In this document: positions 47,456 to 51,674 of the stretch, piece by piece
Numbering within the stretch: position 1 is the first letter of the stretch
How the letters are laid out: every line of letters begins with the position of its first letter
Assembly (NCBI GenBank): GCA_001600635.1
Contig: BCKL01000003.1
Span: 1,220,928 to 1,284,927 of the forward strand
Length of the DNA stretch: 64,000 bases
Source of the DNA: Leucosporidium creatinivorum
Taxonomy: Eukaryota > Basidiomycota > Microbotryomycetes > Leucosporidiales > Leucosporidiaceae
Direction of reading: 5' to 3'
Translations under genes and position numbers: made by a program
The notes under the pieces: generated by a model
What the model was told of the DNA's origin: nothing
Database searches by the model: none
Seen by the model: only the letters and a program-made list of their open reading frames with translations

Positions 47456-50400
47456 TTAGGGTAGGATGTCACGACTGGCGTGGAAGGGGCAGCTCTTGCC
47501 GCGGTCTAGCCAAGATTTGATGCAGCCCTGCAGATGAGAGGAAGGTGAGCGAAAGCTCGACCACGACCAAGCGGCGAGACGGACCTGGTGAAAGTAGCAG
47601 AGGCAAGGCAGGCGAGCGAGCTTGTCGTTGATCACAAACTCCTCAAAGCAAATGCGACATTCCTCCGAGACTGTCCGACGTGAAGAAGAGTCAGCTCGAG
47701 CTCCTACCGAGCCGAGGGACGAACGACGAAGCTCACCCAAAGGACCAGGCGGAAGCTTGAAGACGAGATACCTCCCACCTTGCACGATCGATCCACCTCC
47801 CGTCTCCAAACAGTCCTTGACGTGCTCTTCCTGCTCATCCCGGCCTCCTAGCCCACCGAGATGAGTCCCGCAGACCGGACAGTCGGTGAGGTCGCTCACG
47901 TCCGATGCGCCCGCCTCGCTCGGACTGGCGCTCCCAACGCTGGACGAGCCCGAGGGGAAGAAGGATCCAGCGGTGAGGATCGAAGCACCGCCGCCTGGTG
48001 TAGACGTGGAGGAGGTAGCGAGGCCGGCGGGAAGGGAGAGAGCGGCGTGGCAGGTGTCGCAAGTTCGGTAGCGAAGCGAGTCCCATGGATCCTCAGTGGC
48101 GTGGGCACCGGGCTCATGGACGACGGTGGAGGGTTCGAGTCGGTGTGTGTGGGTCGAGCATGAGTTGCAGACGATTTGGCCGCAGCTGAGGAGGAAATGA
48201 AGGTCAGTTCTCCGCCCAAGAGGGGCGAGCGATGAAAGACGTACCGACGGCAATGATGCTTCCTGATGAAGAAAGTGAACTTGCGCTGGCATCGCCGACA
48301 CTCGTTGGCGAGCTCGTCGGCCTCCCACACAGCCGCTGTTGCTGGGCTCGGCGAGCTCCCGCCGACCTTGACAGCTCGACTGTGGTGGATCTGCGAGGTC
48401 TCGTGCGTTGGGACACGGAAGTCAGGAGCTTGCGAGAGCTGGGGGGTGAGGTCGGGGTAGGAAGAGCTGGTGGCGGCGTTGGGAGGCTGGGAGAAATAGT
48501 CCGAGGTCGAGCCGCCGCTCACCGAGCGAGATGATTGGCGAGAGGTGATACTGGCAGGGCAGTTGGTGATTGTAGTGAAGATGGAGCGAGCGTCGTCATC
48601 GTCTGGGTCGGCGTCGCGGCCGCTGTAGATGAACTCGTCGTCCGAGTCTACGAAAACGAGGAGGTCAGTTCGGGAGCCAAGCAAGTCGACGCCGAGATGG
48701 CAAACTCACCATCTTCCTCATCCTCGGGTCCTAGCTCGGTACGCATGAGAGCGAGCTGGTGAAGGAAAGCCTCGAGCTCTCCCTCAGCCTTCCTCCTCGT
48801 CTCGGCGTTCTCATCGCTTAAGATGCCGGCCCTCAACTCGTCCGCCGCGCGCTCTAGCCTCGCCGCCGCTTTCCTCAGCTCGGCTCGATCCAAGTCGGGC
48901 TCCTCTTCGCCCTCAGCGAGCACCGTCTTTCCCGAGCGGATGCTGGCACGATCCGATGATGAGGAGGCGGGTGGGGCGTGGATGCCGGCGAGGAACTGAG
49001 CACGAGCGCGATAGTCCTCTGTCGCTGGAGGAGCTGCTGGCGAATGAGTGGCGTCCTTTGACCTCGAATCGTTGACCTCGACCTCGTCGTCCTGCTTGCG
49101 CTCGCCGAAACCCCAGCTGGGGATGTCGAGTCGACGCCGCATGACCCTGACCCATCGTCTCCTCCGCACCCATTTCTGTCCTCCGAAACTCATCCCGCTA
49201 TCGCCCTCGAGCACTCTCCGCAGGTCCGCCGGAGGTTCGGACGACCATTCCTCGGCGGGCGCGTCGAACGAGGTAGCGTATGACCATCCATCGACGGGAG
49301 ATGAGGAAGGATCGGTGAGGTCGACGCTCCAGTCGGAGAGCCAGAACCAGGCTGCCTCGCCCTGGGGTACAGGCGCCGAGTTGGATGGCTCGCGAGGGCT
49401 AGCGAGCGGGGTTGCGTCGCCCGAGGTCGAGGCGAGGACGGCCGAGAGAGACGAGGTAGCACTCGAACGACGCGAGCCGCCTTGAGGACGCTTTCCCTCG
49501 GCGATTGAGGCGCTCTTGCCTCGTCCACGACCTGGTCGGCCAGCGCTACGGACCTCCCGCTGCTCGGGGAGGATCACCTCCGACTCCTTGCCAACGATGG
49601 GCAATCCGATCTCGCTGCGGAAGACGGGGAGGTCGGACGAGTCGTCGGCTTGGAGACCTGGGATGGTGGGCATGGTTAAGGCGGTGCGGTTGTCGTTTCG
49701 ACTGAGAGCTTTCGAGCTCCACCGAGGGGCTTGGCCGGCGGCGAGGGTTCCGAGGGAAGAGAGCTTCTTGAGAGTCGGACGAGCAAGACGAGTGTTCTCG
49801 TGAAGGACGACGGGGTGGGTGGAGTGGAGGAGGAGGGGATTGTAGGGCGATTGAGGGGTGCCGTCCGGCGTCGTGCTGGTCCAGACGGAGGCTTCGTATT
49901 GAGCGAGGACGGTGCAGATGTTGACCTCGAAGACGGCAGCGGCGAGGTCGTAGGCCGTCTCGCCCCAGGCGTTGCGAAGCAGAGGGTCGGCGCCTCGTTT
50001 GGTGAGGTAGTGAACAATGGGAAGTTGACCCTTTGATGCACCGTTCACTGCAGATGAAGTTGAGTCAGCTGAGCGTCTCAAGGTTTGTAGTGAAACGCGA
50101 CGTACTGAGAGCCGTGTAGCCGTGCTTGGAGCGCAGGTCGACTTGAGCGCCGGCCTCGACGAGCAGGCGAGCAATGTCGAGCCAGCCGCGAGATGCTGCG
50201 TTGTGGAGGGGCTGTGGAGATGGTACATTAGCGCAATTCAGCGCGAAGAGGATCGGCCAAGCTCACTGTCCAACCGTCTCCATCAGCAACATCGACCGCG
50301 ACGCCCGCGTCGACGAGGAAGCGGCAGACGTTGAGATGTCCTCGGTGGGAGGCCTTGTGCAGAGGTGTCTGATGAGAGAGCCGTCAGATAGTGCTTCTTT

Positions 50401-51581
50401 TTCGTGAGATGACACTGCACGGCTCACCTCGCCCTCAGCGTCCTCTAAGCCGGTCATCGCACCAGCTTTCTCGGCGAGCCACTCGACGACCTGCGAGTTG
50501 TCAGCCGGAGTCCGCTACGCATACCGACCACCGGAACTCACCTCGACATGTCCTCGACCAGCGGCGAGGTGTAGCGGAGTCAGTCCACTCGAGCTGAGCG
50601 TTCGGTTGGCGAGCGTGAAGACCGAAGGCGCCTCGTCGCTGCCATCGCCTCCGCTGAGCAGCGCTTGCAGTCGGTACAGGTCGCCGGTGATGCAGGCATC
50701 GGTGATGAGCGACTTGAGAACGGCTGGATCGTATCCATTGGCGCCGACGCTGCCCGTCGCCGTGTTCGTCTCGCGTGACTGCGAAAGCCGGTGATGAGGA
50801 GTCCGGGCGGAGGGAGTGGTCGAAAGGTCGGGAGATGTAGGAGGTTCGGAGGCGTTGAAGTGGGCGAAGGGTGAAGCATCACGAGGGGTGACCGAAGTGC
50901 CGTACTGGAGGGGATGACCGAGGTTGCCTTCCTGGCCCTCTCTGATGGCGGATGTGGAGGAAGAGCGCTCCCGCGAGAGGGACGAGGCCGTCCGTGGCAT
51001 AGTAATGGGTGCTGTAGGCGAGGCGAAGGGGAAGGTGAACGGCGCAGCTTCGGCGTTGAGCTTCAGAGCGCTGGAGCGCGGTGCTTTGGCGGTGGGCTCT
51101 GAAGAGTTGGATGGCGCTTGCTCCTCTGGTAGCTCAGCTGTAGCATCTTCCTTCGGTTCTTCTGCAGCCGCTTCTGCTGCCTCTGGCGCTGGAGGCTGCT
51201 CATCCTGGCGCTCGTGCCCGCTCGACGCGCTCGACCACATGTCGGATTCGAAAGGCTGGGCGAAAAGGTCTTGTCGGGCTGCAGGCTGAGTAGCCCACGA
51301 TGAGCTCGAGTGCTTGAGTGTAGGTTTGAGCTCTGGCGAGGTCGAGGCGAATCCAGATAGCGGATGTGAGAGCGGATCGCTGCGTATGCTGTGGTGAGCT
51401 GTGCTCTTACGTTGAGTGGCAGGAGGAAGCTCACCTCGCCATACTCGTCTCTGTAGCTCAGCTGCAAGCGAGTTGGAACCCGAAGCTGGAGGCGAAGGGA
51501 GAGCCGTTCGGCGCTTTGAGCTCTCCAAGTCGACGAGTCCAAGCTCAACCGGGCTTGACCTCCTACCAATCGCTCGCTCAT
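47456..51581 (-). CDS. Ankyrin-DysF-FYVE-RING protein, predicted endosomal E3 ubiquitin ligase
   Basis: One minus-strand gene of about ten exons, roughly 1,200 residues. Order: a Ser/Pro-rich N-terminus; four ankyrin repeats (SSGLTPLHLAAGRGHVE, ETPLHKASHRGHLNVCRFL, GWTPLHNAASRGWLDIARLL, LPIVHYLTKRGADPLLRN); a DysF/Pex24-type segment (WFWLSDWSVDLTD, then QKWVRRRRWVRVMRR); a helical linker; a FYVE finger with all three signatures (WEAD, RKHHCRRCG, YRTCDTC), which predicts PI3P binding on endosomes; and a C-terminal ZNRF-type RING (CRICFEEF, LPCLCYFHQGCIKSW, SCPFH), which predicts E3 activity. FYVE+RING recalls yeast Pib1. The N-terminus is unsettled: the best ATG is 51581 but needs a 44-base or a shifted intron to enter the main frame. 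An intron at about 48707 joins the acidic linker in frame, which argues that this is one gene. Confidence 0.85.
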
Positions 51582-51674
51582 TCTTATCGACTACATCTAA
51601 CTCTCAGCGATCCGCTTCAGTGCTCTTACCTGCTCCACCTCAGCTCTTCAACCGACCCCGCACCCACTCGCTCG
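51582..51674. promoter_or_regulatory. Short divergent promoter region
   Basis: If the FYVE-RING gene starts at 51581, only 93 bases separate it from the PLP-enzyme ATG at 51675, implying a shared promoter with overlapping leaders. The exact length depends on the unsettled FYVE-RING start. Confidence 0.45.

What the first reader, a model, noticed from the sequence alone, without database searches (positions are those of the whole stretch)
47456..51581. Ankyrin + DysF + FYVE + ZNRF-type RING in one protein
Read directly: four ankyrin repeats, a WFWLSDW/RRRRWVRV DysF-type segment, a FYVE finger with all three signatures and a C-terminal RING of the LPCLCYFHQGC type. Yeast Pib1 has only FYVE+RING, and DysF domains are known from peroxisome/TECPR proteins. 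The combination predicts a PI3P-recruited E3 ligase with its own substrate-binding and membrane-damage modules, perhaps acting in endosome, vacuole or peroxisome quality control. I do not know of a characterised protein with this order.
Basis: partly seen in the sequence, partly recalled or inferred. Interest (0 to 1): 0.72.

Follow-up and report, generated by a model that had tools for sequence, protein, structure and literature searches.

The report
Upa1-type endosomal mRNA-transport adaptor
The gene very probably encodes the fungal adaptor Upa1, which ties messenger RNAs to moving endosomes; a likely extra DysF-like segment is its only unreported part, so it is mostly a known kind of protein.

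Summary
The domains are in one minus-strand gene: ankyrin repeats, FYVE and a ZNRF-type RING. The DysF segment is persuasive by motif but below every profile cut-off. The window protein also has a PAM2-like LNAEAAPF and, about 100 residues before FYVE, an acidic run ending DEFIYS; the Upa1 PAM2L2 peptide is quoted as DEFIYP (passage of PMC12518507). The same genome encodes a protein whose C-terminus matches U. maydis Rrm4 at E=1.5e-37, and Pab1. Best reading: a Upa1 orthologue, an endosome-mRNP adaptor rather than mainly a quality-control E3. Against: the published core EFxxP is absent (Pro is Ser), no second PAM2L was found, and direct comparison with U. maydis Upa1 was not possible. Unreported for Upa1 in the texts I searched: the DysF-like segment and a ZNRF-like zinc finger. 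Lipid-contact segments of TECPR1 and Pex30 DysF domains are not recognisable here, so a membrane-damage role is unsupported.

The parts
47456..51581 (-). Whole coding region. Exons of the 1176-aa model: 51442-51435, 51379-50542, 50490-50428, 50368-50267, 50211-50106, 50047-48710, 48647-48245, 48185-47585, 47527-47456. Alternative start at 51581; start codon and first intron not settled
51028..51060 (-). PAM2-like motif LNAEAAPFTFP (aa 110-120), predicted Pab1 contact
   Evidence: consensus xxLNxxAxEFxP from PMC4466420
49902..50712 (-). Ankyrin repeats, about aa 226-421, spread over five exons; four clear repeats plus weaker flanking ones
   Evidence: repeat boundaries by eye
49146..49349 (-). 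DysF-like segment, aa 606-673, WFWLSDW to RRRRWVR
   Evidence: sub-threshold by profile
48619..48639 (-). PAM2L2-like motif DEFIYSG (aa 822-828) after an acidic run; predicted Rrm4 MLLE3 contact
   Evidence: DEFIYP of Upa1 PAM2L2 from PMC12518507
48038..48327 (-). FYVE finger, aa 926-1002, across the intron 48244-48186
   Evidence: E 2.8e-17
47804..47881 (-). Zinc-finger-like CPVCGTHL...EEHVKDCLE upstream of the RING, as in ZNRF1
   Evidence: by pattern; 0.8-bit stretch to 5ywr
47480..47665 (-). ZNRF-type RING, about aa 1127-1169, across the intron 47584-47528

Best explanation
The gene is the Upa1 orthologue of this fungus. Inferred mechanism: the FYVE finger binds PI3P on early endosomes; the acidic DEFIYS motif binds the MLLE3 domain of the fungus's own Rrm4 and so hangs messenger RNAs on moving endosomes; the LNAEAAPF motif binds Pab1; the ankyrin repeats hold an unknown partner; the zinc finger plus RING may ubiquitinate nearby proteins but is probably accessory, as in U. 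maydis. The DysF-like segment is an added or overlooked module with unknown ligand. Shown here: domains, motifs, collinearity with published Upa1 positions, and genes for an Rrm4-type protein and Pab1 in the same genome. Inferred: every binding event, the localisation and the function.
For: Order PAM2, ankyrin, PAM2L2, FYVE, RING as in Upa1. Spacing: in Upa1 PAM2L2 is at 948-958, FYVE and RING within 1048-1287, RING within 1241-1287; here 822-828, 926-1002, 1127-1169 of 1176. Motif DEFIYS against DEFIYP of Upa1 PAM2L2, with the Tyr described as critical; DEF[IV]Y in 0 of 20000 shuffles. Own-genome Rrm4-type gene: 7pze E 1.5e-37, 8s6o 5.6e-28, 8s6n 6e-28, best human PABP 1.1e-5. Pab1 MLLE found, nearest solved chain U. 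maydis-type Pab1 8s6u (species of the chain recalled from the paper titles).
Against: No U. maydis Upa1 sequence was available, so orthology is by architecture and motifs. The published PAM2L core EFxxP is absent: Pro is Ser here. A second PAM2L was not found. The PAM2-like motif has PF where the consensus has EF and its Pro is one place late; LN..A..F turns up in 0.7% of shuffles, and the patterns were chosen after seeing the sequence. In the Rrm4-type gene only one RRM is above cut-off, a second is at E 0.12 and the first exon gave no Pfam match.
Confidence: 0.88

Rival explanations
1. One reading: a PI3P-recruited E3 ligase for endosome, vacuole or peroxisome quality control, with ankyrin repeats as substrate module and DysF as membrane-damage module, unrelated to mRNA transport.
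For: FYVE and RING are real; Pib1 and Rififylin have FYVE plus RING. TECPR1 DysF senses exposed sphingomyelin and Pex30 DysF binds phosphatidic acid.
Against: PAM2L2-like motif in the Upa1 position and an Rrm4-type gene in the genome. In Upa1 the RING was dispensable. The residues that contact lipid in TECPR1 and Pex30 lie before the first stack Trp, where the window has a Ser/Pro-rich stretch without Trp (by eye).
Confidence: 0.08
2. Two separate genes or transcripts: ankyrin-DysF, and FYVE-RING.
For: No RNA evidence was available; retaining the intron 48709-48648 ends the frame at aa 839.
Against: That intron has GTGAGT, TAG and CTGAC; published Upa1 has both halves in one protein with PAM2L2 between them.
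Confidence: 0.04

Closest known systems
Ustilago maydis Upa1 (UMAG_12183)
   Same: PAM2, ankyrin repeats, PAM2L2 before FYVE, FYVE, C-terminal RING, in that order and with similar spacing
   Different: DEFIYS instead of DEFIYP; no second PAM2L found; DysF-like segment not mentioned for Upa1 (0 occurrences of dysf in PMC4466420; 0 of dysferlin in the 13 listed papers)
Yeast Pib1 and mammalian Rififylin
   Same: FYVE plus C-terminal RING
   Different: No PAM2, PAM2L or ankyrin repeats, as stated in PMC4466420
ZNRF1
   Same: RING with PCLC and final CPxH, 5ywr E 1.2e-12; a zinc finger upstream
   Different: No FYVE or ankyrin repeats (recalled)
TECPR1 and Pex30 DysF domains
   Same: 7 of 8 Trp/Arg stack positions against TECPR1
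   Different: No recognisable lipid-contact segment before the first strand; below profile cut-offs

Membership tests
Upa1 | Ankyrin repeats, FYVE and C-terminal RING in one protein | tested here: met
   on a splice model without RNA support
Upa1 | At least one PAM2L (acidic run, EFxxP, Tyr) for Rrm4 | tested here: inconclusive
   DDSDDEFIYSG at the PAM2L2 place has acidic run, EF and Tyr but Ser for Pro; EF..P has no match in the protein
Upa1 | PAM2 motif for Pab1 | tested here: inconclusive
   LNAEAAPFTFP fits LNxxAxxF, with two departures from xxLNxxAxEFxP
Upa1 | Rrm4 with MLLE3 in the same organism | tested here: met
   E 1.5e-37 to 7pze; only one RRM above cut-off
Upa1 | Endosome shuttling and Rrm4 binding | not testable with these tools
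   needs cell and binding experiments
DysF domain | Curated profile match | tested here: not met
   Pex24p at 8.8 to 13.5 bits against 26.8; SMART models not available here
DysF domain | Trp/Arg stack of two long end strands | tested here: inconclusive
ZNRF-type RING | RING with final CPxH and ZNRF1 as nearest solved structure | tested here: met

The most novel reading that the evidence does not exclude
In this lineage Upa1 carries a true DysF domain between the ankyrin repeats and PAM2L2, so the endosomal mRNA-transport adaptor reads a second membrane or protein signal beside PI3P, for example phosphatidic acid at organelle contacts, and couples mRNA transport to the state of the endosome.
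Probability: 0.25. Interest if true: 0.6.

Novelty: new variant of a known kind. Interest (0 to 1): 0.4.

Why it matters
It ties an odd-looking domain mix to a known mRNA-transport machine, shows Upa1-type, Rrm4-type and Pab1 genes together in one genome, and points to two modules (DysF-like, ZNRF-like finger) to look for in other Upa1 proteins. If the DysF is real, the adaptor may sense more than PI3P.

Tried and rejected
Rejected: a wholly uncharacterised architecture (Upa1 precedent). Rejected: absence of Rrm4. The MLLE family search found only Pab1. Of 41 RRM matches, 37 lie in the 30 longer regions that I fetched; the other 4 are the Pab1 gene, held at 3 kb. A small MLLE profile gave one weak hit, 10.2 bits, on the C8 gene, which led to the Rrm4 match. 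The output was cut, so I read only part of it; names that I gave other RRM genes were by eye.

Led nowhere: DNA pattern for DEF[IV]Y[SP], 0 hits, which could not match the window since its Ser codon is AGC; DysF piece against PDB sequences, 13 hits at E<=10, none a DysF protein; fold and Foldseek of the DysF piece; NCBIfam, only MzaA at 19.2 bits against cut-off 800; the DysF piece finds only itself in the genome. DUF6907 at 18.2 bits against 26 was set aside as sub-threshold.

Literature: FYVE + DysF + ankyrin + RING as whole words gave 1 paper, unrelated by title and abstract; at least two of Upa1, Rrm4, dysferlin gave 14 papers, 13 listed, none of these with dysferlin; ankyrin repeats + FYVE + RING domain + Pib1 gave only PMC4466420. 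Passages seen: PMC4466420, PMC9249222, PMC12518507, PMC12101078, PMC12101077, PMC10476172; passages and section 10 of PMC12852828. The 2019 paper on conservation of core components is not held. No paper was read whole.

Full report
Observation. Minus-strand translation and splice reconstruction give one protein ending at 47456: 1176 or 1179 aa from ATG 51442, 1219 or 1222 aa from ATG 51581. Of the seven introns after the first, six have a GTRNG donor and a CTRAY branch site; the seventh, inside the RING, has neither, and its retention would add 19 residues without a stop. The first intron has no such site. Upstream, an open stretch without ATG (the ORF that begins at 51603) could not be placed, so the N-terminus is unsettled. 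Pfam finds ankyrin repeats, FYVE and RING above cut-off.

What it is. Upa1 of U. maydis has PAM2, two PAM2L, five ankyrin repeats, FYVE and RING (PMC4466420). It binds Rrm4 through PAM2L, Pab1 through PAM2 and endosomes through FYVE; its RING was dispensable under the tested conditions. PAM2L motifs have an acidic run and FxxP (PMC9249222) and a critical Tyr (PMC12852828). The PAM2L2 peptide in PDB 8S6O is quoted as DEFIYP (PMC12518507). The window protein has EDEEDDSDDEFIYSG about 100 residues before FYVE, as in Upa1 (948-958, with FYVE and RING within 1048-1287). DEF[IV]Y occurs in 0 and LN..A..F in 0.7% of 20000 shuffles; the patterns were chosen after seeing the sequence, so the figures are illustrative. 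Against: EF..P, the published PAM2L core, has no match in the protein, and no second PAM2L was recognised.

The partner test. The window's genome is held, 27.7 Mb in 63 contigs. The MLLE family search finds only Pab1. Of 41 RRM matches, 37 lie in 30 longer regions that I fetched and 4 are Pab1. The gene at C8:541500-546500, minus strand (L064), has one RRM at E 3.3e-20, a second stretch at E 0.12 and a first exon without a match. Its C-terminal part, exons joined by eye, matches U. maydis Rrm4 7pze at E 1.5e-37 over chain residues 159-370, which by numbering should be MLLE2 and MLLE3 (inference), and the MLLE3 chains 8s6o and 8s6n at 5.6e-28 and 6e-28, including about 45 residues before the MLLE core; the best human PABP chain is at 1.1e-5. 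An Rrm4 partner is what the Upa1 reading predicts, and one is there.

Uniqueness. Five other FYVE places exist besides the window's two exon matches, and 34 zf-RING_2 matches at E<=0.001; none of the 34 is within 5 kb of those five. Intron-split RINGs, the window's own among them, escape that search, so this is not proof.

RING. The nearest solved relative is ZNRF1, sharing PCLC and the final CPxH; a Cys/His finger precedes it as in ZNRF1, by pattern only (0.8 bits in the same call).

Verdict. Ankyrin, FYVE and RING confirmed, DysF likely but unproven, functional reading displaced by Upa1. Interest 0.4: mostly known, with an unreported module. That DysF is unreported for Upa1 is a keyword result in an open library; U. 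maydis Upa1 may have one unnoticed. That the organism is a basidiomycete is inference and was not tested.

Noticed in passing
L064 (G000:C8:541500-546500, minus strand): Rrm4-type gene in the window's genome: one clear RRM and a C-terminal part matching U. maydis Rrm4 at E 1.5e-37; unannotated here.
   Followed up: partly
window 51380-51603 (-): Open reading frame without ATG that runs into the second exon; with two rival start codons (51442, 51581) the N-terminus cannot be fixed without RNA data.
   Followed up: partly
window 51675 onward (+): A divergent gene seems to start here (MAPSPPKAG...), looking by eye like a cystathionine gamma-synthase type enzyme, leaving about 95 to 235 bases of shared promoter.
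   Followed up: no
window 47528-47584 (-): The intron inside the RING is in frame (57 bases) with an unusual GTCCGT donor and no CTRAY site; retention would put 19 residues into the RING, a possible splice switch.
   Followed up: partly
L009 and L010 (G000:C31 and C21): Two other loci matching Pex24p, probably Pex30-type peroxins with DysF segments; L009 has a WKWL...VDEEGWQY...TRRRAWVR pattern.
   Followed up: partly
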